From an uncultured Cetobacterium sp. (GTDB lineage: Bacteria; Fusobacteriota; Fusobacteriia; Fusobacteriales; Fusobacteriaceae), in the NCBI GenBank assembly GCA_949293295.1, contig CASFCG010000012.1:1-64000 (forward strand): a stretch of DNA of 64,000 nucleotides, read 5' to 3'. The translations under genes and the position numbers were made by a program. Below, piece after piece: positions 12,770 to 51,859 of the stretch. The notes under the pieces are model-generated. The model ran no database searches. It was not told where the DNA came from and saw nothing but the letters and a program-made list of their open reading frames with translations. The number at the start of each line of letters is the position of its first letter. Within the stretch, counting starts at the first letter, position 1.

Positions 12770-12780
12770 AAATAAATATG

Positions 12781-14079: not shown

Positions 14080-14095
14080 AAAATCTCTCCTTTAT

Positions 14096-15466
14096 TTATT
14101 TTATATCTATAACAGGAAATCTTTTTGAAATTTTTAAATCTATCTCCTGTTTTATAACTTCAGAGCTTTTTTTTATTTTTTCAAATAACTCGCTCTCATT
14201 TAAAAATAAAATTTTTCTATCTTTCATCAACCATTTTCCATCACACATTGTGGCTTCTATATTTTCACTAGACATTGAGTAAACAATATTTCCAACCACA
14301 TCATAGATTGGCAATGAATGTATTGTATCAAAATTTAATACAATTAAATCAGCTTTTTTTCCGACTTCTAGAGTTCCAATTTCGTTTTCTAAAAGAGCAG
14401 ATTTTGCTCCAAATATTGTTGCCATCTCCAGCACTTGTTCAGCAGGAACAACCTTTGGATTTAATGTACGTCCCTTATGTATCAATGAGGTCAAATATAT
14501 CTCTCGCATCATATCCATTCTGTTATTTGAGGGAGCTCCATCCGTTCCAATTGAGACGGTAATTCCCTTTTCTAGCATCTCTGGAATTGGTGCAAATCCT
14601 AATACAACTTTCATTGCTGCTCCTGGATTATGGGAGATTTTTACATCATATTTTTTGATTAATTCAATATCTTTATCATCCAACCAAACAGAATGGACAG
14701 CTAATAGATTTTTATCCAATACACCTAAATTATTCAGGTGTTGAACAGTGGAGAAACCAGTTTTATTTTTTACAAACTCATTTTCTTGTGAAATTTCAGC
14801 TACATGCATGTGAATTCCTGTATTTAATTCATCAGCTATTTTTTTTGTTTTCTGTATCAACTCATCAGAAACATTAAATATAGTTCTTAATCCGAACCAT
14901 ATCTTTATTCTTTCGTTTGCACTATTATTATATTTTTCAAAAAGCTCTTTTTGTTTTTCTATCTCTTCATCTGCGGAATTACTCCAATTTTCTGGCAGGG
15001 ATTCACCACTATCCATAACAGATTTTGTCAAAATAGCTCTCATTCCACTTTTTTTAACCGCTTCTACCATTCCCTCTACACATTGTCCACCAGCCTCTAA
15101 AAACGTTGTTGTTCCAGATTTTATAAGCTCTACACAACAAGCCAATGAAGAAAGATAAGATTTTTCAAAATCGAAATTACTCTCATACGGCCAAACTCTT
15201 TCTCTTAACCAAGTGAGTAAAGTTACATCATCAGCTATTCCACGTCCTAATTGTTGGGAAAGATGCACATGAGTGTTTATAAATCCTGGTAGAATAATTT
15301 TTCCCTTGGCATTGAATATTTCAATATTATCGTCTAATAAGTTTTCTTCAATTTTGCCAACAGCTTTTATTAAGTTGTTTTCAATCAAAATCGACCCATT
15401 TCTAAATATCTCTCTATTACTATTCATAGAGATAATGTATGCATTTTTTATTAAAATTTGGCTCAT
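14096..15466 (-). CDS. Amidohydrolase, MTA/SAH-deaminase or guanine-deaminase-like
   Basis: A 456-residue metal-dependent hydrolase of the amidohydrolase superfamily. Ligands are visible: HVHLSQ (HxH), HMHVAE, AVHSVW and the catalytic Asp in IGTDGAPSNN. The segment TWLRERVWPYES and overall length resemble 5-methylthioadenosine/S-adenosylhomocysteine deaminases and the related SsnA and guanine deaminases. It probably deaminates a purine base or nucleoside. The setting supports this: it is the first gene behind a guanine-type riboswitch and is followed by purine permeases. The start is ATG behind GGAGGGG, and the terminator of the riboswitch ends just 20 nt upstream. Exact substrate is uncertain. 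Confidence 0.85.
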   Translation of the reverse strand: MSQILIKNAYIISMNSNREIFRNGSILIENNLIKAVGKIEENLLDDNIEIFNAKGKIILPGFINTHVHLSQQLGRGIADDVTLLTWLRERVWPYESNFDFEKSYLSSLACCVELIKSGTTTFLEAGGQCVEGMVEAVKKSGMRAILTKSVMDSGESLPENWSNSADEEIEKQKELFEKYNNSANERIKIWFGLRTIFNVSDELIQKTKKIADELNTGIHMHVAEISQENEFVKNKTGFSTVQHLNNLGVLDKNLLAVHSVWLDDKDIELIKKYDVKISHNPGAAMKVVLGFAPIPEMLEKGITVSIGTDGAPSNNRMDMMREIYLTSLIHKGRTLNPKVVPAEQVLEMATIFGAKSALLENEIGTLEVGKKADLIVLNFDTIHSLPIYDVVGNIVYSMSSENIEATMCDGKWLMKDRKILFLNESELFEKIKKSSEVIKQEIDLKISKRFPVIDIK

Positions 15467-28460: not shown

Positions 28461-28518
28461 TTTTAGTTATAGATTTTAGGGGTAATGATATAAGAATAGA
28501 GGAAAGGGGGAAGATTTT

Positions 28519-37894: not shown

Positions 37895-39085
37895 ATGGAT
37901 ATTAAAGATTATAGATATGTGTTGATTCCAAATATTTTAGAAAAATTTAGATGCTCAATGTGTGGTGAATGTTGTGAAAGTAAGTGGAGAATAGATATTG
38001 ATGAGAAATCCTATCAAGCAGTAAAGGAAAGATTGGAAGAGAATAAAGAGGATGTGTCAACATATATAGAGCAGAATGAAAATGGAAACTATGTAGTCAA
38101 ATTCGACGGCAAATATTGTAAATTTATCACAGATGATATAAAATGCAGGATTCATAGAGATTTTGGATGGGAGTGTTTGAGTGATACTTGTAAAATTTAT
38201 CCAAGAAATATGAGGCTGACAAGTAGAGGAATGGAAATAGGATTAGGATTTTCCTGTGGCTCAGTGGCAAAACTTTTACTTACGGATGAAAAAGTAAGTA
38301 TAAAAAAAATAAAAAAAGAGGATTATTTCTTTATGACTCCAAGAGATATTTCTTTTATAATTCCAGAAAACAATCTTAAAACAGCTGTGAACTCAAGATA
38401 TTATGAGGTAGAGGAGATGGCAATTGAGATTTTAAATCAAGAGAAAGATTTATTTACTAAATTAAGCTATCTAGAAAGAATATTAGCTGGTTTGGAGAAT
38501 GTAGCAGATGTTAGGGAGTGCAATTTTAAAGAGGTTATTGAGGGACTGGATGATTTTACAATAGAAAATCCATATACAGAGGAATATTTGGTAGATGAGA
38601 TTATAAAGGCTATTATGAAGAAATCAGAAAGAAGTGAGTCAGTGGCGGAATATTATAGAAGTCTTTTAAAGATAACATCTCTGAGTGGAGATATAAAGAA
38701 AGATAGAAAGTTTTTGAGCTGGTCAGGATATAATCTATATTCAGAAAGATTAAAAGAGTTAAAAGCATTGTGGAATAGCAAATGGGATAAGATTCTTCAA
38801 AGATATTTTCAATGTTACATCTTCAATAAGGAGATATATGATAATTCAGAGTATTTTATGTTTAAAACCACGATTTCAATGGTTATGATAAAACTTAGAA
38901 TGCTTTTAACTATAAAGTATTTGGGAAGAGAACTGACAGAGGATGAGGTAATAGCTGCGATAAAGGGTTATGAGAATGATTTTTCACATGATGGAGATTA
39001 TTTTTCAGAGTATTACAAACAAAAATATGAGAATAAAGAGGATATAAAAGAGGCAACAAGGAAACTGTTACTGATGTTCAAGTAA
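37895..39085 (+). CDS. FliB-family lysine N-methylase with N-terminal Cys cluster
   Basis: A 396-residue cytoplasmic protein. The N-terminus has a Cys cluster of the YkgJ/FliB type: FRCSMCGECCES (about residues 19-30), then C in KYCKF, C in KCRIHRD and ECLSDTCKIYPR (about 95-106). A conserved FSCGSVAKLLL follows, then a helical C-terminal domain. This arrangement is that of flagellin lysine-N-methylases (FliB), which methylate surface lysines of flagellin in Salmonella using a metal/Fe-S centre and SAM. No flagellar genes are seen here. It lies between a TpsA adhesin and the pilus operon, so those exported proteins are candidate substrates. The function in this organism is inference. Confidence 0.78.
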   Translation: MDIKDYRYVLIPNILEKFRCSMCGECCESKWRIDIDEKSYQAVKERLEENKEDVSTYIEQNENGNYVVKFDGKYCKFITDDIKCRIHRDFGWECLSDTCKIYPRNMRLTSRGMEIGLGFSCGSVAKLLLTDEKVSIKKIKKEDYFFMTPRDISFIIPENNLKTAVNSRYYEVEEMAIEILNQEKDLFTKLSYLERILAGLENVADVRECNFKEVIEGLDDFTIENPYTEEYLVDEIIKAIMKKSERSESVAEYYRSLLKITSLSGDIKKDRKFLSWSGYNLYSERLKELKALWNSKWDKILQRYFQCYIFNKEIYDNSEYFMFKTTISMVMIKLRMLLTIKYLGRELTEDEVIAAIKGYENDFSHDGDYFSEYYKQKYENKEDIKEATRKLLLMFK

Positions 39086-39285
39086 TTAAAATGAAATGGA
39101 ATAAGATGAGAGAGATTTTTCAATTTTTAATACTGAAACGAAATTTTAGAATATCACAGAAAGAGATATAAGAATTAATGGTATTTAAAAAAGTGAGATT
39201 TTAATGAATATTCTTATCATAGAAGAGAAAATCAGGTTGAGGAAGAAAAAACAATAGCTAGAGATGAAAAAAGGGAGGTGAGAGA

Positions 39286-39714
39286 ATGAAGATAAAAGCC
39301 AGAATGATGGGAGATAGAATGAATATAAATAATATGCTTTTATCGCCGACTAATCTTCAACTGACAACGAAAGTGTATTGTGAGCAGTTTCCAGTAAAAA
39401 AAAGCGTAGGTATAATGACTATTTTGGATGATTTTGAAGAGAAAGATAATTGCTTTCAGGTTGTATTAAAAAATTCTAAGGAACAAGAGCTAGGGAGAGG
39501 TTCAAAGTTTAGAACTCATTATTTGACTTTAGAAAGAGAAGGAATTGTGATTTATAACGTAAATGATATTACTTTCGAGAGTAAGGATGATTTCTATATA
39601 GTGGAGCTTTGGAATGAGGATGAGATTTTAGATAGGTATAAGTTAGAGTGTTGTGCTGAAATCTATGATGTGTATATGAATTTGTTGCCAAAAGGTAGAG
39701 TTTCATTGATATAG
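39286..39714 (+). CDS. Conserved-looking cytoplasmic protein of unknown function
   Basis: A 142-residue protein without signal peptide or membrane segments. It starts behind a near-perfect ribosome site (AGGGAGGTGA) and stops 26 bp before the chaperone gene, so it opens the pilus operon. The predicted fold is mostly beta (VGIMTILDDFEE, FQVVLKNSKEQELG, DFYIVELWNEDEILDRYKLE). The VELWNEDEILDRYKLE pattern is loosely like small beta-sandwich DUF6941-type proteins, but I do not claim membership. A role in regulating the operon or assisting FliB is a guess from position only. The 200 bp before it (39086-39285) hold no recognisable feature. Confidence 0.6.
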   Translation: MKIKARMMGDRMNINNMLLSPTNLQLTTKVYCEQFPVKKSVGIMTILDDFEEKDNCFQVVLKNSKEQELGRGSKFRTHYLTLEREGIVIYNVNDITFESKDDFYIVELWNEDEILDRYKLECCAEIYDVYMNLLPKGRVSLI

Positions 39715-39740
39715 AGGAATTAACTCATAAGGAGAAAGAG

Positions 39741-40490
39741 ATGAGATTAAAAAAATGGATATTTAGTATGTTTTTAGTTCTTACGGGACTTATATATGCT
39801 ATTGAAATAGAAAATCTTGATTTTAATGAGAGATTAGATGCTGAAGGGTATAACGAGGTCGCTTTGATAAATAAAACAACAGAGAAACAGATGTACAGAG
39901 TAAGTATCGGAAAAGGTAAAAAAAATGATGGTTCAAAATATGTGGAGGTACAACCAAAAGTAATAACTGTTATGCCATTGAGTAAAGCTAAAGTAAAACT
40001 ATTTGGAGTAGCACCACAAACAGCAGAAAAAGGAGAGTATGACTTTTTCTTTAAGGTAACACCGATATCAATTCCAGTGTTAGCAAAAAAATCAGACGGG
40101 AAACTTGTCACATCAGCTACGACAATAAATGTTGCACCAGAGGTTAGAATGTATGGTTATGTGGGAGAGGTTGATTTCCAAAAGGAGATAAAATTCAGAG
40201 GTGTAAAGTTCACAAAATCAGAGGATAAAAAGTCAGTGTTTTTTGAAGCTCAGATGGAGAATACGAGCTATGCAACTATAGATTTTGGAATAGCTTTTTA
40301 CAATGGAACAGATAAATATCTAACAAGTACTAGATTGGGAACATTAAAAGCTGGTGAAAGAAAGAGAGTAAAAGTGAAAGTGCCGAATGTAAGCGGTATT
40401 GACACTGTAAAAAGAATAGACCTTTATAGATTTGGACCAGAGGGTATGAAAGTATATAAAGTGGCAAGAGAGAAAGATGGATGGCAATAG
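39741..40490 (+). CDS. Periplasmic pilus chaperone, PapD-like, two domains
   Basis: A 249-residue periplasmic protein with signal peptide (FLVLTGLIYAIE, cleavage about residue 21). The N-terminal immunoglobulin-like domain shows the chaperone pattern: beta strand VALINKTTEKQMYRVSI, then VQPKVITVMPLSKAKVKLF (the P-rich strand preceding G1) and GEYDFFFKVTPISIPV, comparable to the DREslFWLNVrnIP region of PapD. A second Ig-like domain follows (VFFEAQMENTSYATIDFGIA, ERKRVKVKVP). Such chaperones donate a beta strand to unfolded pilins and deliver them to the usher. The pilin and usher genes follow directly, which makes the assignment strong despite low expected sequence identity to enterobacterial chaperones. 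Confidence 0.78.
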   Translation: MRLKKWIFSMFLVLTGLIYAIEIENLDFNERLDAEGYNEVALINKTTEKQMYRVSIGKGKKNDGSKYVEVQPKVITVMPLSKAKVKLFGVAPQTAEKGEYDFFFKVTPISIPVLAKKSDGKLVTSATTINVAPEVRMYGYVGEVDFQKEIKFRGVKFTKSEDKKSVFFEAQMENTSYATIDFGIAFYNGTDKYLTSTRLGTLKAGERKRVKVKVPNVSGIDTVKRIDLYRFGPEGMKVYKVAREKDGWQ

Positions 40491-40555
40491 TTTTTAAGTG
40501 AAAGAGATTTAGAGAAAAAAGTGTTATAAGTTAAAGATAAAAGACAGACGTGAGA

Positions 40556-40585
40556 ACTGGGAGTAACAAAAATAGTTATCCCAGT
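40556..40585 (+). promoter_or_regulatory. Hairpin between chaperone and pilin genes
   Basis: ACTGGGAGTAAC-aaaaata-GTTATCCCAGT forms an 11-bp stem with one bulge and no T run. It lies 65 bp after the chaperone stop, in the 314-bp gap before the pilin. It may be an RNA processing or stabilising element. The rest of the gap is AT-rich, with no clear promoter seen. Confidence 0.5.
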
Positions 40586-40804
40586 AAAAATAAAGAGAGA
40601 TAATAGATAAAGATAATAATAATTGAAAAGGGCATATTATTGGGAGAATAGAAACAAGGATAGGCTGTGAAAAAATCCGTGGAAAAAATAGTTGTATGAT
40701 TTATAAAAGTTGATTGGATAGTGAATTTAGAAATTGAGGTTGATATTAACTGAGTGAAAGCTCATTAATATATAAAAAATTATAAATTTAGGAGGATTTT
40801 CATT

Positions 40805-41350
40805 ATGAAAAAATTATTTTTAGTAACAGCATTAGCAACATTAGCAACAACAGCATTTGGAGCGACAGGACAAGTAATTGAGGAAATGAAAGCAGCAGGA
40901 GCAACATCAGCAAATATCCCAATAACTGTAGAAGGAAAAGTAATAAGTAATACAGTAGACAGATTAGTAGTTACATTTGATAACTCAGATACACCAAACG
41001 GAACAGCATTCAGATTTATATTACCAGATGCAGTTTTTGAAGAAACAGTAAAAGCAACAGCAAAGTATACAGCCAAAGTAATAGATGGAACAACTGGAGT
41101 ATCGAAAGAAGCAAAAATCTATGGGGGATTATCACAAAATGGAGCACCTGTAGCGGCAAATGCAACATCAATAGTACTTACTGATGGGTCAATAGCTTAT
41201 GATATTACAGGGATTTCACTAACAGCACCAGCAGCAAAATCAGCAGACCCAGTAACAGGAAATTTAAATGTTACATTAACAGCACCAACAGGAACAGCAG
41301 GGTCATACTCAGATAATAGTGTATCATTAAAAATATCAGCAGAAAAATAA
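40805..41350 (+). CDS. Candidate major pilin subunit
   Basis: A 181-residue exported protein with signal peptide (VTALATLATTAFG, cleavage about residue 19). The mature N-terminus has an alternating hydrophobic strand (ANIPITVEGKVIS) suited to donor-strand exchange. The C-terminus ends in a strand typical of fimbrial subunits (YSDNSVSLKISAEK). The composition is rich in Ala, Thr and Val and poor in aromatic residues, and no cysteine occurs in the mature part. Codons are strikingly uniform (GCA, ACA, GTA), which fits very high expression. The ribosome site TTTAGGAGGA is strong. It is flanked by hairpins and sits between chaperone and usher, the usual place for a major subunit. No database match was made; assignment rests on architecture and context. 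Confidence 0.75.
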   Translation: MKKLFLVTALATLATTAFGATGQVIEEMKAAGATSANIPITVEGKVISNTVDRLVVTFDNSDTPNGTAFRFILPDAVFEETVKATAKYTAKVIDGTTGVSKEAKIYGGLSQNGAPVAANATSIVLTDGSIAYDITGISLTAPAAKSADPVTGNLNVTLTAPTGTAGSYSDNSVSLKISAEK

Positions 41351-41381
41351 TATATTTCTTTGTACTTGAAATAAAAACAAG

Positions 41382-41412
41382 AGGTAGAGGAATTTTTCTC
41401 TCTACCTTTCCT
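41382..41412 (+). terminator. Partial terminator between pilin and usher genes
   Basis: AGGTAGAG-gaatttttct-CTCTACCT followed by TTCCTT. A weak T tract suggests read-through, which would give much pilin and less usher. Confidence 0.7.
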
Positions 41413-41535
41413 TGAAAAATAAATTTATTAACTCGGATGGAGGAGCGGAGAGCTTAATATTTTTTATTCTAATATTGGTATAAAAAAGCTCCTGTTTTAA
41501 GTTAATAGAATTATAAAATTATGGGGAGAATGTGC

Positions 41536-44199
41536 ATGAAGAGAAAAATAATATTAATATTTTTTATAAATCTAATACTTCTTTTTGCACAAGAGCAAGA
41601 GCTTGAATTGCAGAAATTAAAAGATCTAAAAGAGCAGAATTTGATTTCTGAAGAAGATTATGAGATTTTGAAAAATGATTTATTGGGAATATCAAATGAG
41701 AGATTATCATATTATAGTTTATCAATAAATTCAAAACTTGTTTCAAGAAAGTATAAAATAATAAATGAAAATGGAAAAACTTATTTTCCAATAAAAGAGT
41801 TCTTTGATTATATAGGATTCGTGAATTATGAAGAGAAAGATAAAAGATTAGTAGTATATTTAGGGAATAGTCTGACAAAAAGAGAGATTGACTTAGAAAA
41901 AGATGGATTATATAGGGATGGTGTGCTATACATAAGCGAAGAGAGTTTTAAAAAGATATTTTTAAGCTATTTTGAGATGAATAAACAGGATAGGAAACTG
42001 TTTGTTAGACTTGCTTTTGACACGCCAAAAGAGATAGAAGCACTTGTTCTTGCAACTCAGGAAAAACTGAATTACGAGAAGGATGAAGATGTTTATATAT
42101 ACAACTCTAAAAGAGGTTTGTTTGATTTAGGTTATGCTAAGTTTAATTTCTCACAAAATTTTTCAAAAACAGCTGGAGAGGATAAGTATAAAGCTGATTG
42201 GAGCTCATCAATAGGATATCAAGGTGGATTGCTATACGGGGAGATATCTTTAGACTATGATATCAAAAATAATGAACTTGGAAACATCAGTTTGAAATAT
42301 ACTGATATTTGGAAGTATCATAGTTTGGATATAGTTTCATCGAGATATGGAAAGGGTAGAGCTTTTGGTATTAATTTTTATAAGGATAAGAGTTTCTATG
42401 ATGATGGTGGAGAGATAGTTATCAGTAGAGATGTTCCTATTGGAAGTAGAGTAGAACTTATATATTTGGGACAGGTAATAGAGATACAAGATGAAACAGA
42501 TGGAAAGGTAAGTTTTAAAAATCCATTGATTAGAACAGACCAAACCTACACTTTAAAAATCTATACTCCAGATGGAAAGATTACAGAGAGTGAGATAAAA
42601 ACAACGGATAACTACAATCAACAAAAAAGGCATGAGGTAGAATATAAGCTATCAGTAAATGAAAATAAAAGTTATGATAGATTTAATATAGATGCTAACG
42701 TCTACTATGGTCTTACAGACAACTTGACAATGGGAGTTTCATACGGAAGAATGCCGACTGAATTGACCTCAATGGAAGGAAAAAATAAAGTTGAATATTT
42801 GAATACAGTTGGAGCGAATTTGACCTATGCTGGAAACATTTATTCCTTGGCTTATACACTTAATGCGGGAGGAAATTTTACTTTAGATGATAAAGAGATT
42901 CCAGTTGCCTCTGAAACGGGAACGAAAAAGGTATCTACACTTGATAGCTATAATTATAACTATTTAATGCAATTGAATTATAGATGGTTTAAGTTTATAT
43001 ATCAATATAATGGATATGGAGAGTTTTTTGAACAGGAGGATGCTCACAGTATTGAGGCACAGTACTCCACAAGTTATCTGACTTTAGGTTACAGTTGGGA
43101 TAAAACAAATTACAGGATAAAGGGAAGAAAGAGCGAAGTAAACTCAGATGCGACGCTAAATCTTAATTATAGTTGGAACTCATTCCTATTTAACTTTGGA
43201 ACAACTTATGATATAGAGAATGAGAAACAGGGAAATTATACAGCAAGTATCTATTATAGTGGTTGGCAAAACTTTACAGTAAGATTAGAGGGAATTTTGT
43301 CAGATGATGCAAAAACATATGAGACAAAATTATCGTTGTACAATAGTAACTATGGTGGATTGTTTAATTTCAGTGGTGATATCTCCTATTCGAATGTAAA
43401 TAAAGAGAGGTTCACTTTGACAGCTAATTTAAAACTTAGAGATTGGTTGAATATCGGAAACTCATTTGATGATAAAGGGTCAGCAAGCCATACAATCGGT
43501 GTCAACAAGGTTATTGATTTGAGAAATCCACTGGCAAATATTGATAGTTCAAGCAGTTCAAGGGTAAAAGTTGTAACTTTCGTAGATGAAAATAATAATG
43601 ATAAGTTTGACTTTGGTGAAGAGGTATTGCCAGGTGTAACAGTTGGATTATCTGATATGACAGGAACCACTGATGAGAATGGAACATGTATGTTCTACGG
43701 TATTGCAAATGCTATTGAATATGATTTGAAAGTGGTTGTTAAAAAACCATCATTAACGGTTGGAAATAAGAGATTAAAAGTAAAAAGTAGTTTCACTTCA
43801 ACGGTTGAAGCATATGTTCCGATAAAACCTCTTCTATCTTTGTCGGGATATGTTGAGATTGACGAGCAACTTGGATTGGTTGGAGATGAGAGAGTGGAGT
43901 TCTTAAATAACTTGATTGTTGAACTTAAAGATTTAAATGGTAAAGTTATTGAAACAACTGTTCCAGATAATGAAGGTATATTTGAGATGAGTGGACTTTT
44001 CCCAAGTGATTATTATGTAGAGGTTACATATGTTGGAACAAAATATGAGCTAAAATCAATCAAAAAACAAGTTGAATTATACTATTCTAAGATTGATAAC
44101 AGAAATAAAATCACGTTAAAGGTTGGAAATAGTTTTGCTATTGAGATACCAGATAAACGAATGGCAAAAAGAATGGCGAAAGCAGGAGGTGCTGAATGA
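41536..44199 (+). CDS. Outer-membrane usher of a divergent chaperone-usher pilus
   Basis: An 887-residue outer-membrane protein with signal peptide (ILIFFINLILLFAQ). The mature N-terminus begins with a SHOCT-like helical pair (LKDLKEQNLISEEDYEILKN). An usher-like N-terminal domain follows (about 60-150; YFPIKEFFDYIGFVNYEE, YISEESFKKIFLSYF). A barrel of about 190-680 contains the most telling segment near 298-350, DVPIGSRVELIYLGQVIEIQ and FKNPLIRTDQTYTLKIYTPDG, the conserved usher pattern of a Gly/Pro turn, vector-like strand and tyrosine-rich closing strand. From about 684 two carboxypeptidase-regulatory/CnaB-like sandwich domains follow (FVDENNNDKFDFGEEVLPG), as in CS1-type ushers. The start at 41536 (MKRKII) has GGGGAGA at 6 bp; the ATG at 41521 lies upstream of that site. 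The gene overlaps the next by 4 bp. Confidence 0.8.
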   Translation: MKRKIILIFFINLILLFAQEQELELQKLKDLKEQNLISEEDYEILKNDLLGISNERLSYYSLSINSKLVSRKYKIINENGKTYFPIKEFFDYIGFVNYEEKDKRLVVYLGNSLTKREIDLEKDGLYRDGVLYISEESFKKIFLSYFEMNKQDRKLFVRLAFDTPKEIEALVLATQEKLNYEKDEDVYIYNSKRGLFDLGYAKFNFSQNFSKTAGEDKYKADWSSSIGYQGGLLYGEISLDYDIKNNELGNISLKYTDIWKYHSLDIVSSRYGKGRAFGINFYKDKSFYDDGGEIVISRDVPIGSRVELIYLGQVIEIQDETDGKVSFKNPLIRTDQTYTLKIYTPDGKITESEIKTTDNYNQQKRHEVEYKLSVNENKSYDRFNIDANVYYGLTDNLTMGVSYGRMPTELTSMEGKNKVEYLNTVGANLTYAGNIYSLAYTLNAGGNFTLDDKEIPVASETGTKKVSTLDSYNYNYLMQLNYRWFKFIYQYNGYGEFFEQEDAHSIEAQYSTSYLTLGYSWDKTNYRIKGRKSEVNSDATLNLNYSWNSFLFNFGTTYDIENEKQGNYTASIYYSGWQNFTVRLEGILSDDAKTYETKLSLYNSNYGGLFNFSGDISYSNVNKERFTLTANLKLRDWLNIGNSFDDKGSASHTIGVNKVIDLRNPLANIDSSSSSRVKVVTFVDENNNDKFDFGEEVLPGVTVGLSDMTGTTDENGTCMFYGIANAIEYDLKVVVKKPSLTVGNKRLKVKSSFTSTVEAYVPIKPLLSLSGYVEIDEQLGLVGDERVEFLNNLIVELKDLNGKVIETTVPDNEGIFEMSGLFPSDYYVEVTYVGTKYELKSIKKQVELYYSKIDNRNKITLKVGNSFAIEIPDKRMAKRMAKAGGAE

Positions 44200-44807
44200 A
44201 AAGAGTGATAATATGTTTATTGATGCTTACTACTCTTTTGTTTTCTGCTGATGATGGGAATAGCTCTGCCAATAATGGAAATAGCAATGGAAGTGGGATA
44301 GAGTTGACACCACCTATCCCATTGCCACCAGAATTGACGAATCCAGAAACTAAAGATGATTACACAATCCCAGAGATAAAAAAGGAGAGAGTTCCAAATC
44401 TAGAGGGAAATGAACTGAGATATCTAGAGCACACTTATACAGTTATGATGGAATCGAAAGTTGATTTATACATACCACTTGAGGTTATAACAGATATAGA
44501 TATTGATGCTACAGTTATAGGAAAACAAGTGAAAGAGATACCTTTTGAGATAGAGCTTAATAGGACACCGGAGAAAAAAGATTACTACTCTATCAAATAT
44601 AGTGAGAGTGTGATAGATATTGATAATGACGGAAAACCAGATACGTATATTCACTCACCTAAATATGTCAACGAAAGAATAGTTAAAGATAACTATGTAA
44701 AGATATATGGAGAGAATATATCTAAGGCAGGAAAACATACAAAGGATGTTTATATAACTGTTGAGGTTGGAGATACAGCAGAAACAACAGAAAAAAAAGA
44801 TAAATAA
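44196..44807 (+). CDS. Exported minor pilus subunit candidate, DxDxDG motif
   Basis: A 203-residue protein with signal peptide (LLMLTTLLFSADD). After a low-complexity Ser/Asn/Gly and Pro segment (about 20-50), the protein is beta-rich. It contains DIDNDGKPD (about 147-155), a calcium-binding-type loop, and ends with HTKDVYITVEV, a strand typical of subunit C-termini, followed by a charged tail. The gene starts within the usher stop (ATGA overlap), behind AGGAGGT. I do not recognise a named family. A role as minor subunit or adaptor is inferred from operon position and the strand pattern. Confidence 0.62.
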   Translation: MKRVIICLLMLTTLLFSADDGNSSANNGNSNGSGIELTPPIPLPPELTNPETKDDYTIPEIKKERVPNLEGNELRYLEHTYTVMMESKVDLYIPLEVITDIDIDATVIGKQVKEIPFEIELNRTPEKKDYYSIKYSESVIDIDNDGKPDTYIHSPKYVNERIVKDNYVKIYGENISKAGKHTKDVYITVEVGDTAETTEKKDK

Positions 44808-44818
44808 GGAGATGAGTT

Positions 44819-45313
44819 ATGAGAGTTTTAATTCTATTTTTAACTATTATCATCACGAATCTATCCTATTCTGCTCTTAGATTGAAAATTATAGAACCAA
44901 TCAGGTTTGGTGAAGTGGATATAAAGGCGGTTGGAGACAGCGTTGTTGGTCAGGGAGCTATAGAGATATTTTCTGATGATCTGGAGAACGATAAGGACAA
45001 AAAATTTATCTTTAGATTTCCTAAAAAAGGCTTGATGACAAATAAAAAAAGATGGGTAGAGATAGAGAAGTATATCATGAAAGATAGTGATAAGGAGTTT
45101 AAACTTACTAGAGATAAAAAGATTGTGAAAATCTACGCTCTGATAAAAAGGTCGAGTTTAAATAGTCAGTTGATATCAGGTGATGATTTACAAGGGGAGT
45201 ATATCGGATATGTTCCAATTGTGGTAGAACAGTATGGAAAACCTATAATAGTGGATAATTCTTCTGAGTCTGATGAGAAAAAGCCAGAAACGGAAGTTAA
45301 GGAGAGCAAATGA
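44819..45313 (+). CDS. Exported minor pilin-like protein
   Basis: A 164-residue protein with signal peptide (ILFLTIIITNLSYSA, cleavage about residue 20). The mature N-terminus LRLKIIEPIRFGEVDIKAVG with later QGAIEIFSDDL and GEYIGYVPIVVEQYG is the pattern of several fimbrial-subunit families: first strand with a FG motif, and last strands GxYxGxxxVxV. A charged, disordered tail (SSESDEKKPETEVKESK) follows. It has its own GGAG ribosome site, 12 bp after the previous stop, and its end overlaps the LysM gene by 4 bp. Minor subunit is the best reading; an accessory assembly factor is possible. Confidence 0.65.
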   Translation: MRVLILFLTIIITNLSYSALRLKIIEPIRFGEVDIKAVGDSVVGQGAIEIFSDDLENDKDKKFIFRFPKKGLMTNKKRWVEIEKYIMKDSDKEFKLTRDKKIVKIYALIKRSSLNSQLISGDDLQGEYIGYVPIVVEQYGKPIIVDNSSESDEKKPETEVKESK

Positions 45314-46119
45314 AAAGGATATTGTTTAGTTATTTTATAATAGTGTCGCTTGTTTATTCACAGATATTGGAAGCAGATATAATGGAGAAGGATAATAAAC
45401 TTAGAATAAAGATAAGACCAGCTAATAAAAATGAGGCTTTATCAGCTGAAATAGATGAAGCACCAGTGCCGAAAGTGGAGGAAAAACCAAAGTTTATAAA
45501 ATATATAGTTTCAAAAGGTGATACTCTGATGGGAATAGCACGAAGATATAAAGATGCCTATGATAATAGTGAGTCTTTGGCAAGTGTTGTGAATCAAATC
45601 TACTCGGATAACCCAGAGATGAGAAAAGGGACAACTCTTGAGATAGGACAGGTAATAGATATAAGAGTTCTGGTTAGTGGTAGAGAGGAATCAGAGAGTA
45701 GTAGGTCAAGTTTGAAAAAGTATATAGTGCAAAGAGGAGATACACTATTTAAGATAGCACAGAGATTTAAGAGTGGTTATGAGAATAGTGAATCTTTAGC
45801 AAGTGTAGTAAAACAAATCTACCTAGACAACCCGGAGATAAGAAAAGGAAGTTATCTGAGAATAGGACAGGTGGTAGATGTAAGAGTTTCAGCTGATAAT
45901 GAAAATGAGTTTGAAAATAGTAAATTAAGTTTTAAAAAATATGTAGTACGAAGAGGAGATACTCTATTTAGGATAGCTCGAAGATTTAGAGATAACTATC
46001 CAAACCTTACAGAAACAGCTGATATAGTAGAACAGATAAAACAGGATAATCTGTGGAAAAGGGATTTTAATACACTTGAGCCTGGTGAGATATTAAATAT
46101 TAAAGATGATGTAAGATGA
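45310..46119 (+). CDS. Periplasmic protein with three LysM-type domains
   Basis: A 269-residue protein with signal peptide (ILFSYFIIVSLVYSQ). Three consecutive repeats of about 57 residues start with YIVSKGDTLMGIARRYK (about 74), YIVQRGDTLFKIAQRFK (about 139) and YVVRRGDTLFRIARRFR (about 212). Each ends in a GQV/GEI xxI strand. This is LysM with an insertion of about 13 residues (NSESLASVVNQIYSD) between helix 1 and helix 2. LysM binds peptidoglycan glycan chains. The gene overlaps both neighbours by 4 bp, so it is an integral part of the pilus operon. An anchoring or positioning role for the usher or pilus base is inferred; enterobacterial chaperone-usher operons do not usually carry one. 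Confidence 0.85.
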   Translation: MKRILFSYFIIVSLVYSQILEADIMEKDNKLRIKIRPANKNEALSAEIDEAPVPKVEEKPKFIKYIVSKGDTLMGIARRYKDAYDNSESLASVVNQIYSDNPEMRKGTTLEIGQVIDIRVLVSGREESESSRSSLKKYIVQRGDTLFKIAQRFKSGYENSESLASVVKQIYLDNPEIRKGSYLRIGQVVDVRVSADNENEFENSKLSFKKYVVRRGDTLFRIARRFRDNYPNLTETADIVEQIKQDNLWKRDFNTLEPGEILNIKDDVR

Positions 46120-46529
46120 GAAAACTATATGTGGTAATATTTATTCTAATGAGCATGAGAGTATGGGGATATATAAATATCTATCCGGCAGAGTTTGATA
46201 AGGATATAACTCACGGAGCTGATGGAAAGTTTAGATTGTATAATAGGTTGAATAAACCTGTTAAATATAGAATCTATCTTGAAGAAGAGAGTGAGAAAAA
46301 TAGTATGTTGGATTGGATAGAGATATATCCCACTACCATCTTTTTAAAGCCCCTAGAATCAAAAGAGATAAAAATCTTAATTACGCCCAAAAAGGGTGCA
46401 AAAGATGGAGATTATAGTGCTAGGTTGGTTGTAAAACAGATAAATATACCGAGAGAGATGAAAGAGAAAAAAGTGAATTTTTTAACGATATTAAAGCTAA
46501 AGTTAAAAGGGCGGATAAAAAATAAATAG
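46116..46529 (+). CDS. Single-domain PapD-like chaperone
   Basis: A 137-residue protein with signal peptide (VIFILMSMRVWGY). The mature part is a single immunoglobulin-like domain: INIYPAEFDKDI, FRLYNRLNKPVKYRIYLEEE, IEIYPTTIFLKPLESKEIKI and GDYSARLVVKQI. The order of strands and the P-x-L-x-P-x-x-S/K step match the first domain of pilus chaperones, but the second domain is absent; the tail is short and basic (LKLKLKGRIKNK). The tail could remain as a tether or bind acidic partners. It overlaps the LysM gene by 4 bp. It may be specific for the large adhesin encoded next. Confidence 0.7.
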   Translation: MRKLYVVIFILMSMRVWGYINIYPAEFDKDITHGADGKFRLYNRLNKPVKYRIYLEEESEKNSMLDWIEIYPTTIFLKPLESKEIKILITPKKGAKDGDYSARLVVKQINIPREMKEKKVNFLTILKLKLKGRIKNK

Positions 46530-46556
46530 TAAGGGGGAGAATCTCTCTTACTTTTT
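46528..46556 (+). terminator. Attenuator-like hairpin before the adhesin gene
   Basis: AGTAAGGGGG-agaat-CTCTCTTACT (10-bp stem with two G-U pairs) followed by TTTTT. It begins at the stop codon of the single-domain chaperone and lies 22 bp before the next start. Partial termination here would lower adhesin level. Confidence 0.7.
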
Positions 46557-46574
46557 CATAAGGAGAAAGGATTT

Positions 46575-49500
46575 ATGAAAAAAGTAAAAACGAAGATTGT
46601 TTTGTTTTTTTTAGTTTTAAATTGTGTCTTTCTATTTGCTGGAGCGGATGAAGTACCAAATACTTTAATAACAGAGAATCCAGAGAGAGAAGTAAAAACA
46701 ATAAAGGCTCCTAAGAATAGAGAGAGTGCAAAGATGAGCATAAAAGTAAACAAAGTTGATATAAAAAAGATAAAGCCAATTTCAAGGTCGAAGAGAAAAA
46801 ATCAAACTGTTTATAGAATTGATAATGATAAGTCAAGTGGGATAGAGACTAAGAGTGTAGTGGATGAAAAGATAGTAGTAGCAAAAGATTTAGAGACTTT
46901 AGAGAGATTGACTGATAAAAATCTGAATATTAAAACGTTAAAAGAGTTGATTACAAGTAGGGTACTGGAGAAAGAGGGCTACAAAGAGATAAAGGTAGAT
47001 ACAAGTGAGCCTGTTTATATAGGAATATTCAGAAATGGAGAATTAACAGGTGTTATTCAGGGTACTACCCCCCCCGGTATTGAAGTTACTGTAAAAGGTA
47101 CATATGGTTATACTCAAACACTGCAGTATCTTGAATTAGGAGGAGGAGAAAGAACATTTCAAACAAGCATAAAGACTGATTATTCGTTATCAGGTTACGA
47201 CGGTGCTTATGCAGAGCCTAATGATCCTGATAGATATCTACCTAGAGGTTTTTATGATGGATGGGAGGAGCTCAGAATATATGAGCTTGAGGATGTTGAG
47301 CGTCCTAAACTCTTTAGTCAACTAACATCTATGAATAAACTTCCACCGATGAAACTTGTATGGGAAGCTCCTAATAATGTAGCTACTCTATTAGGGATTA
47401 CGCCAGATGATTTTTGGCAAGAAAAGTTAGTAGTACCGAAAGTTTATACAGTAAAAGGACCTTTTGTGTTAAATTTTACCAAGTTTACAGCAGAGGTTGA
47501 GTTTACGATAGACAACGTAAATGGGAATTCAATTGCTAATTTTACAAATATAAAGTTGAATGCACCCTATGAAAAGGAGGCTTATATCGGCACAGTGGTA
47601 ACAACTGCATATGGGGATAATGGTCAATTCAATGGAGAGGACCTTCCTTTTTTTAGACATTATAGTCAGTTGTTTTTAAAGTTAACAAAGGATGAGCAAG
47701 CACCGCAAAATACCGGGAAAATAAGTGTTCCTGCAACATTTCAAAATATGATAAATTTTTTGTCTGGTGCGGAGCTTGTACATAAGGTAACAGTTACTAA
47801 TTTGGAAAAGGTCATGATGTTACCAGACTCTCCGACTTCATCTTTAGAGTTCTCTTTACTTAGAGATGAGGGGGAGGGGATTTATAGAATGGAAAATTAT
47901 TGGGATGTTTTTGCAGGAGGAATGAGTACTGCGGATGGCTGGGAAATAGATCCGTTGAGCAAGATTTGGATGAAAACAGAGTATAATGCCAATACTGATA
48001 TAATAAAGACATCTTTTAAGGTAGATCCAAATGATATAAAATGGGGCGGAAAAGGTACAAAGAATGGACGATATTTGTTTCAAGCTGCATTACCTGAGCA
48101 AAGTTTGAGTGGCGCAACAGCACAACAATTTAGAGAGCATAAAATAGTTCCAGTTATATCAAATGTCTATATTCAGTCGAATGGTGGGTGGCGACGGCCT
48201 GTAGATATAAATACAAGAAGTATTAATTATCCTACTGGTGTAACGGTGTATCATCCAGCTTATGAACCAAGATTGGATGCATTATTTGAAAATGATACTA
48301 ACAAAACAGCCCCAGAGGTAATATACATTCCAGTGGAAAAGGAAGGTGAAATGACTTATACAGATAGAGTTCCATATATGATAAATGGAAAATATCCGGG
48401 TTCCACTTCTCTATTCAGTAATGGTTTAAAAGTTGTGCCTCTAGTTTATGATGGTGGAATGATAAGCAGTAGTGCTAAATATTATGGTTCTGATGGAAGT
48501 TATCCTAATTTTAATGTTAAATTGGATTCTTCAAAACTTGGAGGTACAAAAAAAGTAGAAGATGTAATAGTGGATTGGAATGTAGAAACTGGAGATAGAC
48601 GAATAACTGCAACTGGGTTAGAAGCTCCTATGAAAGCAACACCTTCCTATATACCATCCCCTTATGTATTACCGAGTCAGATGTATGATCTGATAACATC
48701 AATAGCTGGTGGGATAAGATTTATGGTAATTCCAACAAATACTGCGTTTTCTGAACCTAAAGTTTACTTTTTTCACTATCCAGAAGAATCTCTGTCTGCT
48801 GAAGGAGATATAACTATTACGCATAGAACCAAACCGCATAAAATAACAATTGATACCTATGGTAAATCAGGAGGTATGGCGTCGTACGTAGATAAAGGAA
48901 ACTATACGATAACTATATCTGATAAATCGGGAGGAAGGGGGAGTGTAACTATTCCTGTTAATTCTTCTGAAGCTAAAAGCGTTAAAAATGATGGACTTAA
49001 TAAATATGGAATAACAGTGCGTACTAATAGTACTACTGGTGGTATGGTAAATGAAATAGAGTTAGTTTGGGATGGAGTGACAGCCTCTCCAGCAGAGGGG
49101 TATGATTATGAAATAAAAACTACATATGACCTTCACGCACTTTCTGATACCGGTCTTGTTGGGCAAAAATACAAAGATTTTACAATTTATAATAAAACTG
49201 GGACAATCAGGGGAAAATTATACTTAAAAGAATCAGGATTAAGCCTTATACCTGGTTATGATAAAATAATTCTTCCAGATATGGTACAAGGGGAAACAAT
49301 AGATTTTAATGCAGTAGTTGGAATTAGGGTAGGTACGACTGGTATGGAGGTCAGTGGAAAATTACAAAGCCCTACAGGAGCAATAACATTAAATGGAAAA
49401 GCTGGTGCTGGAGAAAATGAAAAAATATTTTTGACAAATATGAATGCACGAAAGCATACTAGTGGATTTTGGGGGAATTATGAAGAGGAAATTCATGAAT

Positions 49501-49679
49501 ACTTTTCTGATAAACGTTACTTTACAATTACAGGAACAGCAAAAACTCAATCAGATACAGTTCCAGGCAACTATAGAGGGGAAATATTGATGGATCTTGA
49601 AATTAAAGAGTATACGAGCGTGCCGGGATCACTACCAACAATACCAGGACTTCCATCAACAATAGGAGGAAAAAAATGA
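46575..49679 (+). CDS. Large exported protein, candidate pilus-tip adhesin (1034 aa)
   Basis: A 1034-residue protein with signal peptide (IVLFFLVLNCVFLFAGA). After a basic linker (about 30-130), the protein is beta-rich, with many short Gly/Asn/Pro turns and no recognised domain. The C-terminal 150 residues resemble a subunit domain: an alternating strand LPDMVQGETIDFNAVVGIRV and a terminal GNYRGEILMDLEIKEY before a short Pro/Gly tail. A two-part protein (large receptor-binding part plus C-terminal pilin domain) is the expected layout of a tip adhesin. It follows a single-domain chaperone and overlaps another by 4 bp. A run of eight Cs at 47068-47075 within codons 165-167 could allow frameshift switching. 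No family could be named. Confidence 0.68.
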   Translation: MKKVKTKIVLFFLVLNCVFLFAGADEVPNTLITENPEREVKTIKAPKNRESAKMSIKVNKVDIKKIKPISRSKRKNQTVYRIDNDKSSGIETKSVVDEKIVVAKDLETLERLTDKNLNIKTLKELITSRVLEKEGYKEIKVDTSEPVYIGIFRNGELTGVIQGTTPPGIEVTVKGTYGYTQTLQYLELGGGERTFQTSIKTDYSLSGYDGAYAEPNDPDRYLPRGFYDGWEELRIYELEDVERPKLFSQLTSMNKLPPMKLVWEAPNNVATLLGITPDDFWQEKLVVPKVYTVKGPFVLNFTKFTAEVEFTIDNVNGNSIANFTNIKLNAPYEKEAYIGTVVTTAYGDNGQFNGEDLPFFRHYSQLFLKLTKDEQAPQNTGKISVPATFQNMINFLSGAELVHKVTVTNLEKVMMLPDSPTSSLEFSLLRDEGEGIYRMENYWDVFAGGMSTADGWEIDPLSKIWMKTEYNANTDIIKTSFKVDPNDIKWGGKGTKNGRYLFQAALPEQSLSGATAQQFREHKIVPVISNVYIQSNGGWRRPVDINTRSINYPTGVTVYHPAYEPRLDALFENDTNKTAPEVIYIPVEKEGEMTYTDRVPYMINGKYPGSTSLFSNGLKVVPLVYDGGMISSSAKYYGSDGSYPNFNVKLDSSKLGGTKKVEDVIVDWNVETGDRRITATGLEAPMKATPSYIPSPYVLPSQMYDLITSIAGGIRFMVIPTNTAFSEPKVYFFHYPEESLSAEGDITITHRTKPHKITIDTYGKSGGMASYVDKGNYTITISDKSGGRGSVTIPVNSSEAKSVKNDGLNKYGITVRTNSTTGGMVNEIELVWDGVTASPAEGYDYEIKTTYDLHALSDTGLVGQKYKDFTIYNKTGTIRGKLYLKESGLSLIPGYDKIILPDMVQGETIDFNAVVGIRVGTTGMEVSGKLQSPTGAITLNGKAGAGENEKIFLTNMNARKHTSGFWGNYEEEIHEYFSDKRYFTITGTAKTQSDTVPGNYRGEILMDLEIKEYTSVPGSLPTIPGLPSTIGGKK
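47068..47075 (+). repeat. Poly-C8 tract inside the adhesin gene
   Basis: Eight consecutive Cs within codons ACC-CCC-CCC of a very AT-rich genome. Frame is open in this copy. Confidence 0.95.
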
Positions 49680-50080
49680 AGAGATTGATACTGTATTTTT
49701 TAAGTGTAACAGTTGTTTTTTCCTTTGAGATTGATGAGTTAAAGTTTAATAAGGAGATGAAAGTCGGAGAGACAGCGGAAAAAATTTTTAAATTGACAAA
49801 TAATAATCCAGATAGGACGGTAAGTTATAATTTAAGGATAGAGGGAGATAGGAATGTAAAAGTATCTCCCGCGAAGATAGTTTTAAAAAAGTTTGAAAGC
49901 GGGTATTACAGTATAAAAGCAACAGGAAAAAGAAAAGGAACCCATCATTATAAATTGATTGTAGAGGAGGGAGACATTATACCAGATAAGAAAGAGGAGA
50001 TTAAAAAGAGTAATAAAACTGGGGGTAGTATTACTTTGAAGAGAAGAGTAGCCATAGAACAAAAGTATAAGGTAAACTAA
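49676..50080 (+). CDS. Second single-domain PapD-like chaperone
   Basis: A 134-residue protein with signal peptide (LYFLSVTVVFSFE). The mature region is one immunoglobulin-like domain: IDELKFNKEMKVGETAEKIF, KLTNNNPDRTVSYNLRIEGD, VSPAKIVLKKFESGYYSIKA and HHYKLIVEE, followed by a basic tail. It is shorter than the 46116 protein and more diverged, but keeps the strand order N-domain, P-x-x-V/I-x-L. It overlaps the adhesin gene by 4 bp, which suggests it handles that product. No second domain is present. It could alternatively be a small accessory subunit. Confidence 0.62.
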   Translation: MKRLILYFLSVTVVFSFEIDELKFNKEMKVGETAEKIFKLTNNNPDRTVSYNLRIEGDRNVKVSPAKIVLKKFESGYYSIKATGKRKGTHHYKLIVEEGDIIPDKKEEIKKSNKTGGSITLKRRVAIEQKYKVN

Positions 50081-50103
50081 ATGTTTTAAAAAAGGAGTCT
50101 ATA

Positions 50104-51792
50104 ATGAAGAGAATAATAACAACAGTTTTATTTATGATTGTGTTTGTAACGGGATGTTTTAATAAGCAGGATAATAAAGATGTAGCATTTAAAGTAAATG
50201 ATAAAGTTGTGAAACTAAAAACTGTTCAAACAGCTTTGGTAAAGGGAAAAGATATTTATGTAAAATCTTATGGAGCACAACTGTTTGACCCAAATGTTGT
50301 TTATCCTATAACATTGGATGGGATTATCGGAAGTGAACTGTTGGTTGAACTTGCTGAAAAATCGGTAAAAAAATCTTTTGACAGTGAGTTGAATACTCAG
50401 TTAGGAAAGATAAAAGAGAGATTGGGAGGAGAGAAACAGTTTAATGAGTTTTTAACAGCACAAGGATATACATTGGATTCATTGAAAGATGAGTTGAGAA
50501 GAAACCTGATGATACAGGAGTATTATAGAACTCTTTTAGCAAGTATAACTGTAACAGAACAAGAGGTAGCAAAAAATTATAGTGATAACAAAGCTTATTT
50601 CAAAGATAAAACGTTAGCTCAAGTTAAAAATCAGATAGTAGAAGCATTAAAACAAAAGAGATTGAATGAAGTTATAGAATTAAAATTGGCAGAAGCTAAG
50701 AAGAATGCGAAAATAACATCTGTTAATGAGGAGATAAAATCTTTCCTACCAGCAGTAGCTTTTACTTATGAGGGAGTACAAGTGTCAAACGTTGAGTATG
50801 ATAATGTGATTTTAGAAACATTGGGAGCACTACAGAAAAAAGATTTGAATGAGGCTAAAAAAATAGCTAAATCAAAAATAGAAAGAGATATAAAATCTGT
50901 AGTTATGTTTGAAAAAATGGGAGTAAAAGTAAATAAACTACTTCCATTAAAAAAGCAGATTAAGTTAGCAGTACCTCAGATTTATACAACTTTTTATAAT
51001 CAGGTAAAAGTTACAGATGAGCAGTTGAATGCATATTTTGAAAGAAATAGAGCAAGATATGATATACCACAAAATGTAGATGTAGACTTGGCAATACTAA
51101 ATGTTAAACCTAGTGCTGACGATAGAAAAGTAGCTAAAAATAAGGCTACTAAAGTTCTAAAAGAGACTACACCAAAGAATTTTGCGGAGATGGCTAAAAA
51201 ATACTCTGATTCACCAAATGGAAAAGATGGTGGAAAAATTGCTCCATTCAAAAAAGGAAGCATGGTAAAGAGTTTTGATGAAGCAGCGTTTACGGGAGAG
51301 ATTGGGAAAGTCTATCCAAAAGTTATTGAGACAGAGTATGGAAATCATATTCTTTATATCCAAGATAGAAAAAATGATGTTGTGGTAGCTAGTCAGATAT
51401 TGATTGAACCGAAAGCTTCAAAAGTTACTACAGATAGAGCTGTAAAAAATGTGAAAAAATATGTGGCTGATTTAAAAGCTAAAAAAGTTACTTTTGATGG
51501 ATTGAAAAAATTGAATCCAGATATAACTGTTATTGGAAGAGTAGATAGAATAAATGCAAATACAAGTCGATTACAAAAGGATTTTGTGAAAAAATTGTTA
51601 TCTGCTAAAGTTGGAGAGGTTGGATATTTTACAGGGGAATATAATAACTATTTTATCTATAAAAAAATAAAAAACGTTCCATTTACAAAAGCTGTTCTTA
51701 GCCAAATTAAAGGAAAAGTTGAAGAGGATTATAGAAATGAAATGGTTATGAGAAAATTTAGGGCTCTTCAAGCAAGTATAGATAAAAAGTAA
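50104..51792 (+). CDS. Parvulin-type peptidyl-prolyl isomerase lipoprotein (SurA/PrsA-like)
   Basis: A 562-residue lipoprotein: lipobox VTGC with Cys18 after MKRIITTVLFMIVF. The N-terminal chaperone region (about 30-310) is helical and SurA_N-like (QFNEFLTAQGYTLDSLKDEL). A PpiC/parvulin rotamase domain lies at about 320-430 with FAEMAKKYSDSPNGKDGGKI and ETEYGNHILYIQDR, and a helical C-terminal part follows. It would act at the periplasmic face of a membrane as a folding factor for exported outer-membrane or surface proteins. The gene starts 23 bp after the pilus operon and is the last gene before a strong terminator, so it is probably co-transcribed and helps fold usher or subunits. Confidence 0.85.
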   Translation: MKRIITTVLFMIVFVTGCFNKQDNKDVAFKVNDKVVKLKTVQTALVKGKDIYVKSYGAQLFDPNVVYPITLDGIIGSELLVELAEKSVKKSFDSELNTQLGKIKERLGGEKQFNEFLTAQGYTLDSLKDELRRNLMIQEYYRTLLASITVTEQEVAKNYSDNKAYFKDKTLAQVKNQIVEALKQKRLNEVIELKLAEAKKNAKITSVNEEIKSFLPAVAFTYEGVQVSNVEYDNVILETLGALQKKDLNEAKKIAKSKIERDIKSVVMFEKMGVKVNKLLPLKKQIKLAVPQIYTTFYNQVKVTDEQLNAYFERNRARYDIPQNVDVDLAILNVKPSADDRKVAKNKATKVLKETTPKNFAEMAKKYSDSPNGKDGGKIAPFKKGSMVKSFDEAAFTGEIGKVYPKVIETEYGNHILYIQDRKNDVVVASQILIEPKASKVTTDRAVKNVKKYVADLKAKKVTFDGLKKLNPDITVIGRVDRINANTSRLQKDFVKKLLSAKVGEVGYFTGEYNNYFIYKKIKNVPFTKAVLSQIKGKVEEDYRNEMVMRKFRALQASIDKK

Positions 51793-51830: not shown

Positions 51831-51859
51831 AAAAAGTGCTGAAATTTTCAGCACTTTTC
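51831..51859. terminator. Bidirectional terminator overlapping a coding end
   Basis: AAAAAGTGCTGAA-att-TTCAGCACTTTT. T runs occur on both strands, and the right arm includes the last codons and stop of the convergent O-methyltransferase gene (stop ends at 51848). Confidence 0.9.

What the first reader, a model, noticed from the sequence alone, without database searches (positions are those of the whole stretch)
39286..51792. Complete divergent chaperone-usher pilus operon in a fusobacterial genome
Seen: genes read in one direction, mostly overlapping or separated by under 50 bp, with larger gaps (about 185-315 bp) only on either side of the pilin gene. They encode a two-domain chaperone (39741), a secreted pilin-like protein (40805), an 887-residue outer-membrane protein with an usher-type P-x-G-S-x-V-E-L segment and C-terminal CnaB-like domains (41536), two small exported beta proteins, a LysM protein, two single-domain chaperones, a 1034-residue exported protein and a parvulin lipoprotein. 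Known: chaperone-usher systems of this order are described mainly in Proteobacteria and a few other phyla. Inference: this is a distinct clade of the pathway, with its own accessory parts, that would be missed by ordinary similarity searches.
Basis: partly seen in the sequence, partly recalled or inferred. Interest (0 to 1): 0.9.

Follow-up and report, generated by a model that had tools for sequence, protein, structure and literature searches.

The report
Hidden chaperone-usher pilus in fusobacteria
A fusobacterial genome carries a full set of genes for building chaperone-usher hair-like adhesive fibres, a machine that reviews say the best-known fusobacterium lacks, and its key pore protein belongs to a family of usher relatives that standard databases file under other names in several bacterial groups.

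Summary
The observation and its core interpretation hold. The 887-residue protein is an usher. Its AlphaFold2 model (pLDDT 79.6) has FimD and PapC chains as its first 18 PDB fold matches (best E 7e-25). Its clade's profile matches a Proteobacterial usher-like family (99.5%, E 3e-23), which matches E. coli ushers (95.2%). A FhaC control barrel fails (2% or less). The chaperones are PapD relatives, X1 (44196) folds like a chaperone-usher pilin, and homologues of the 1034-residue protein end in a pilin-type DUF4402 domain.

The operon is 39741-50080. The 39286 gene belongs to a separate conserved pair (with 37895), and the parvulin is an extra paralogue linked only here. The 'CnaB-like' tail corresponds to the usher's ordinary C-terminal domains.

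Related ushers occur in 35 of 98 fusobacterial genomes, all in one family; 22 carry the window's clade. New features are two kinds of 'half-chaperone', which lost the C-terminal domain at least twice, and a recurrent LysM protein. Related usher-like genes on Proteobacterial plasmids are annotated 'carboxypeptidase regulatory-like' or 'SdrD B-like', and Pfam's Usher model misses all six tested. The major pilin is inferred, not shown. New variant of a known pathway.

The parts
39741..40490 (+). Two-domain PapD-like periplasmic chaperone (CHAP1)
   Evidence: Signal peptide; family profile vs E. coli chaperones 86.6%, vs E. coli plus a Polaromonas chaperone 96.0%; PapD_N matched by 3 of 21 relatives in A3 and over cut-off in the own genome's second cluster
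40805..41350 (+). Major pilin candidate (pil4 family)
   Evidence: Signal peptide, place between chaperone and usher in every pil4-type locus, tandem copies in L055, C-terminal G-x-[YF]-x-D-x-x-V-x-[LI]-x-[IV] ending. No Pfam match; no profile link to SCPU/DUF4402 pilins once signal peptides are removed (1.2%), but a link to the pil7 pilins (90.3%)
41378..41414 (+). Hairpin just after the pilin gene, proposed partial terminator
   Evidence: Folding (z only -1.2 here); hairpins of unrelated sequence follow the pilin gene in 10 of 11 comparable gaps
41536..44199 (+). Usher, 887 aa: SHOCT-like helical start (aa 24-50), N-terminal domain (about 57-160), barrel (about 200-661), two C-terminal beta domains (about 672-775 and 780-870)
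   Evidence: AlphaFold2 model and Foldseek; profile chain; Pfam SdrD_B/CarboxypepD_reg on the tail only
42394..42615 (+). Plug-like insert of the usher (about aa 287-360) with the conserved P-[IL]-G-S-[RK]-[VA]-E-L segment
   Evidence: Strand order in the model; segment conserved in alignment A1
44196..44807 (+). X1: minor pilin subunit with a DxDxDGxxD (calcium-type) loop
   Evidence: Core pLDDT above 90; Foldseek matches almost all chaperone-usher pilins (FimA, SafA, FimG, PapE, CsuE), best E 0.036, probability 0.99; after the usher in nearly all window-clade loci
44819..45313 (+). X2: second small exported subunit, probably a pilin too
   Evidence: Conserved in nearly all window-clade loci; strand-like ending GEYxGYxPIxVxxY; pilin fold not tested
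45310..46119 (+). Exported protein with three LysM (peptidoglycan-binding) domains
   Evidence: Pfam LysM 82.8 bits; one- to four-LysM proteins in the same place in other loci and in the own genome's second cluster
46116..46529 (+). Half-chaperone A: chaperone N-terminal domain only
   Evidence: Nested in the clade of two-domain second chaperones (support 98/93 and 95/89)
46575..49679 (+). 1034-aa tip adhesin candidate with a C-terminal pilin-like domain
   Evidence: Homologue in L054 has DUF4402 at its C-terminus, 35.3 bits (cut-off 25.2), with weaker matches in others; C-terminal profile vs SCPU/DUF4402 pilins 95.9%, E 5e-9; window copy alone has no Pfam match
49676..50080 (+). Half-chaperone B: chaperone N-terminal domain only
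   Evidence: Own clade of seven half-chaperones, support 100/100; next to or within one gene of the adhesin in most half-chaperone loci
50104..51792 (+). Parvulin (PPIase) lipoprotein; perhaps co-transcribed, not a conserved part
   Evidence: Rotamase and SurA_N matches; extra paralogue, housekeeping copy at G000:C22
51832..51858 (.). Bidirectional terminator-like hairpin
   Evidence: z -5.2

Best explanation
This is a complete chaperone-usher operon. Pilin, minor subunits and adhesin enter the periplasm by Sec. The two-domain chaperone (39741) lends each subunit a strand and delivers it to the usher (41536), a plugged outer-membrane barrel with N- and C-terminal periplasmic domains. Subunits are joined there by donor-strand exchange and secreted as a thin adhesive fibre, with the 1034-residue protein probably at the tip and X1 (and X2) as minor subunits. 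The two half-chaperones keep the chaperone's subunit-binding domain but lack the second domain, so they probably hold particular subunits, most likely the adhesin, without presenting them. The LysM protein probably ties the assembly to peptidoglycan. Shown by computation: usher fold and homology, PapD homology, X1 pilin fold, DUF4402 domain at the end of adhesin homologues, conserved gene order, independent loss of the chaperone C-domain. Inferred: fibre formation, tip position, the roles of half-chaperones and LysM protein, and the pilin identity of 40805.
For: Usher: Foldseek ranks 1-18 are FimD/PapC chains, best E 6.8e-25. Profiles: window clade vs other fusobacterial ushers 100%, E 8e-72; vs Proteobacterial DUF4402-linked usher-like proteins 99.5%, E 3e-23, and those vs E. 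coli ushers 95.2%, E 3e-8; FhaC control 2% or less. A homologue hit at E 1.6e-17 (G059) scores over Pfam's Usher cut-off. Chaperones: PapD_N over cut-off beside the own genome's second usher and in 19 of 98 genomes. X1 fold search. Adhesin C-terminal DUF4402. Conserved order. SCPU/DUF4402 pilins in the sister fusobacterial loci.
Against: The major pilin candidate has no direct family match and was not modelled. The window clade alone does not match E. coli ushers (2.2%); the link goes through intermediates and through structure. By DSSP I count 25 long barrel strands, not exactly 24. X1's Foldseek E-values are modest (0.036). No expression or microscopy data. The residue lined up by eye with PapD Lys112 is not conserved in this family (alignment A3).
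Confidence: 0.92

Rival explanations
1. An usher-chaperone machine that exports a short surface fibrillum or a single large adhesin rather than a long pilus, with 40805 as a minor or non-polymerising subunit.
For: The 1034-residue exported protein is far larger than usual tip adhesins, related loci encode proteins of over 2000 residues in that place, and the pilin candidate has no direct family match.
Against: Separate pilin-like genes in nearly all loci, four tandem pilin-like genes in L055, hairpin after the pilin gene in 10 of 11 gaps, and X1 folds like a polymerising pilin.
Confidence: 0.2
2. The 887-residue protein is some other large outer-membrane barrel (LptD-like, TonB-dependent receptor or TpsB) with adhesin-like tail domains, and the neighbours are unrelated Ig-fold proteins.
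For: Pfam sees only SdrD_B/CarboxypepD_reg in it; LptD and TonB receptors appear lower in the fold search.
Against: They rank below all 18 usher chains by many orders of magnitude (E about 1e-6 vs 1e-25); FhaC-family profile gives 2% or less; it sits with PapD homologues and pilin-type proteins in every locus.
Confidence: 0.03
3. The operon is degenerate in this reduced genome and no longer makes a fibre.
For: The assembly is small (1.18 Mb at 83% completeness; relatives mostly 2.1-3.1 Mb), and a second cluster in the same genome (C16) has its usher split into two reading frames.
Against: All reading frames in the window operon are intact, mostly overlapping or closely spaced, and of normal length.
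Confidence: 0.07

Closest known systems
DUF4402-linked usher-like loci on Proteobacterial plasmids (Polaromonas, Novosphingobium, Sphingopyxis, Pseudoalteromonas), annotated as carboxypeptidase regulatory-like, SdrD B-like or hypothetical proteins
   Same: Same usher family (99.5%, E 3e-23), chaperone just upstream, DUF4402 subunits in most, SdrD_B-type tail, missed by Pfam's Usher model
   Different: No counterpart of X1, X2, the half-chaperones or the LysM protein is annotated in them; two Pseudoalteromonas loci carry SPOR domains instead
Archaic (sigma) chaperone-usher pili such as Csu and CupE
   Same: Pilins of sister fusobacterial loci match SCPU over cut-off and DUF4402; wide spread outside gamma-Proteobacteria is typical of the archaic class (PMC4654587, PMC10104325)
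   Different: No Csu-type usher was available for comparison; usher not recognised by Pfam; extra components; the published range names Proteobacteria, Cyanobacteria and Deinococcus-Thermus, not Fusobacteriota
Classical chaperone-usher pili (Fim, Pap)
   Same: Usher fold, two-domain PapD-like chaperone, donor-strand type subunits
   Different: Very low sequence similarity (11% in the structure alignment), no PapC_N or PapC_C match, no cysteine pair in the pilin candidate

Membership tests
Chaperone-usher pathway | Outer-membrane usher: large plugged barrel with N-terminal and C-terminal periplasmic domains | tested here: met
   Model and fold search, 901 aligned columns to FimD; profile chain. 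Strand count 25 by DSSP, not exactly 24
Chaperone-usher pathway | Two-domain PapD-like periplasmic chaperone | tested here: met
   Profile 96.0%; PapD_N over cut-off in close paralogues. No structure model made
Chaperone-usher pathway | Chaperone anchoring residues equivalent to PapD Arg8 and Lys112 | tested here: inconclusive
   By-eye reading of alignment A3: a KRID/ERLD arginine is common; the Lys112 position is not conserved
Chaperone-usher pathway | Subunits with an incomplete Ig fold and N-terminal extension | tested here: inconclusive
   Met by fold for X1 and by DUF4402 in adhesin homologues; not shown for the pilin candidate 40805 or for X2
Chaperone-usher pathway | Chaperone, usher and subunits in one operon | tested here: met
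Chaperone-usher pathway | Donor-strand exchange and usher-dependent fibre on the surface | not testable with these tools
   Needs experiment
Pfam Usher PF00577 | Match over the curated cut-off | tested here: not met
   No window-clade usher matches in 98 genomes; FimD scores 761 bits with the same model
Archaic (sigma) class | SCPU-type pilins | tested here: inconclusive
   Met in sister fusobacterial loci, not in the window's own pilin
Archaic (sigma) class | Usher groups with Csu/CupE ushers in a tree | not tested

The most novel reading that the evidence does not exclude
The fusobacterial ushers and the misannotated Proteobacterial 'carboxypeptidase regulatory-like/SdrD B-like' proteins form an unrecognised usher class, present in at least two phyla and missed by the standard Usher model. 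In Fusobacteriaceae it has twice evolved stand-alone chaperone N-domains that work without docking to the usher.
Probability: 0.55. Interest if true: 0.75.

Novelty: new variant of a known kind. Interest (0 to 1): 0.62.

Why it matters
Recent reviews still say that Fusobacterium nucleatum has no chaperone/usher pathway (PMC12940168, PMC13432900, citing a 2005 survey), and published ranges of the pathway do not name Fusobacteriota (PMC4654587). Here related ushers appear in 35 of 98 fusobacterial species genomes, all in one family, so a whole adhesin system has been overlooked in a phylum known for adhesion. The half-chaperones make a mechanistic question testable: what does a pilus chaperone do without the C-terminal domain? 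The misfiled Proteobacterial relatives suggest that usher counts in genome surveys are too low.

Tried and rejected
Direct PDB searches with the usher and chaperone profiles found no pilus proteins. Window-clade ushers vs E. coli ushers directly: no signal. Pilin-pilin profile hits partly reflected shared signal peptides; after trimming them the window pilin family keeps a link to the pil7 pilins (90%) but not to the SCPU/DUF4402 pilins. X1 and X2 have no profile link to any pilin; X1 was settled by structure. The genome-contig scan gave only Fusobacteriaceae plus one Saprospiraceae tail-domain hit, but its seed patterns are narrow, so it does not bound the range. Attempts to reach a Csu-type usher failed; I did not fetch a known plant-pathogen megaplasmid as a yardstick. 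A role for the parvulin and the 39286 gene in the pathway was considered and set aside.
Full report
Observation. From 39741 to 50080 they run in one direction with gaps of -4 to +45 bp, except 314 and 185 bp around the pilin gene. A terminator-like hairpin at 51832-51858 ends the unit.

What standard searches see. Pfam and NCBIfam find no usher, PapD or pilin in any window protein. The usher shows only SdrD_B/CarboxypepD_reg in its tail.

The usher. Homologues occur in 35 of 98 fusobacterial genomes, all in the window's family; 22 have the window's clade and 13 only a more distant one. One distant homologue (G059, E 1.6e-17) itself passes Pfam's Usher cut-off. Profile comparison gives window clade to distant clade 100% (E 8e-72), distant clade to E. 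coli ushers 96.9% (E 2e-10), and a FhaC control 2% or less. Six proteins from Proteobacterial plasmids link both ways: window clade 99.5% (E 3e-23) and E. coli ushers 95.2% (E 3e-8). The AlphaFold2 model has mean pLDDT 79.6. It shows an N-terminal beta domain, a linker helix, six long strands, a plug-like insert, about 19 further long strands (my DSSP count totals 25, close to the 24 expected), and two C-terminal beta domains. The first 18 PDB matches are FimD or PapC chains, best E 6.8e-25 with 901 aligned columns. The 'CnaB-like' domains therefore occupy the place of the normal C-terminal domains of an usher. A SHOCT-like helical segment before the N-terminal domain is extra.

The chaperones. 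The own genome's second cluster (C16) has a PapD_N match over cut-off directly before its usher, whose gene is split into two frames. The two-domain fusobacterial chaperones match E. coli chaperones at 86.6%, and at 96.0% when a Polaromonas chaperone is added. The proteins at 46116 and 49676 contain only the N-terminal domain, ending after the last strand of that domain. A tree of N-domains puts 46116 and its relatives inside the clade of second, two-domain chaperones (98/93 and 95/89), and 49676 in a separate clade of seven half-chaperones (100/100), so the second domain was lost at least twice. The 49676 type lies next to or within one gene of the adhesin in most of these loci.

The subunits. 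X1 was modelled. Its core is confident (pLDDT above 90) and its fold matches are almost all chaperone-usher pilins, from FimA and SafA to PapE and CsuE (E 0.036 at best, probability up to 0.99). Homologues of the 1034-residue protein carry a DUF4402 domain at the C-terminus, 35.3 bits in L054 against a cut-off of 25.2, and the aligned C-terminal regions match SCPU/DUF4402 pilins at 95.9%. That is the layout of a two-domain tip adhesin. In sister fusobacterial loci the pilins match SCPU over cut-off, and one (L042) matches DUF4402 over cut-off. The window's own pilin candidate is supported by position, signal peptide, tandem copies in L055, its C-terminal ending and the hairpin behind it (10 of 11 comparable gaps), but by no direct match. 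The hairpin in the window is itself weak (z -1.2).

Accessory parts. A LysM protein follows X2 here, in several other loci and in the second cluster. In many other loci a WG-repeat protein sits beside half-chaperone A, and in L063 the two are fused; the window lacks it. The parvulin is an extra lipoprotein copy; the housekeeping copy is on another contig. The 39286 gene travels with 37895, alone or behind FhaB, not with ushers.

A wider hidden family. A Polaromonas plasmid gene found through a distant fusobacterial usher sits behind DUF4402 genes and a gene annotated as a pilus chaperone, yet is annotated as carboxypeptidase-like. Its relatives in Polaromonas, Novosphingobium, Sphingopyxis and Pseudoalteromonas are annotated likewise or as hypothetical. 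None of the six tested matches Pfam's Usher, while FimD scores 761 bits with the same model. In a quick tree, fusobacterial ushers form one group (100), the window clade a subgroup (100), the Proteobacterial ones another group (99) and the E. coli ushers a fourth (89); long branches make the deep order uncertain. No paper in the library mentions DUF4402, and reviews from 2026 state that F. nucleatum lacks chaperone/usher pathways (PMC12940168, PMC13432900).

Mechanism. From established knowledge of the pathway: Sec export, strand donation by the chaperone, delivery to the usher, donor-strand exchange, secretion of a fibre with the adhesin first. The parts for each step are present. The half-chaperones lack the second chaperone domain, which in known systems takes part in docking to the usher (own knowledge), so I infer holding rather than delivery. 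The LysM protein suggests fixing the base to peptidoglycan; SPOR domains in the two Pseudoalteromonas relatives hint at the same need.

Verdict. It is a divergent chaperone-usher operon, a new variant of a known kind, with a fair chance of belonging to an unrecognised usher class.

Noticed in passing
L091, L104-L108 (Proteobacterial plasmids): Usher-like genes beside chaperone and mostly DUF4402 genes are annotated carboxypeptidase regulatory-like, SdrD B-like or hypothetical and are missed by PF00577.
   Followed up: yes
L105:5938-9126 and L107:3407-3892, 8709-9347: In two Pseudoalteromonas loci a SPOR domain is fused to the usher or encoded beside it, paralleling the LysM protein of the fusobacterial operons.
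   Followed up: partly
window 26778-37659; L057:8201-18000; L062:10428-18999: A two-partner secretion pair (FhaC/FhaB) lies near the operon; in two sister loci it follows the usher directly.
   Followed up: partly
window 37895-39714: A CxxCxxCC-domain protein and a 142-aa protein form a conserved pair seen behind FhaB or alone in other genomes.
   Followed up: partly
L051 (G000:C16:58000-77000), 6233-15313: Second chaperone-usher cluster of the same genome; the usher is split in two frames and X1 is shortened and altered at its end, so it is decayed or carries assembly errors.
   Followed up: partly
window 40555-40587: Strong hairpin between chaperone and pilin genes without a T run (fold z -4.8); role unknown.
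   Followed up: no
window 44600-44660 (X1): X1 carries an invariant DxDxDGxxDT loop of calcium-binding type in all homologues aligned.
   Followed up: no
L063:11258-12730: Half-chaperone A fused to WG repeats; in other loci the two are neighbouring genes.
   Followed up: partly
L069:11231-17112: Sister-clade locus with alternating chaperone and SCPU-type pilin genes in several pairs.
   Followed up: no
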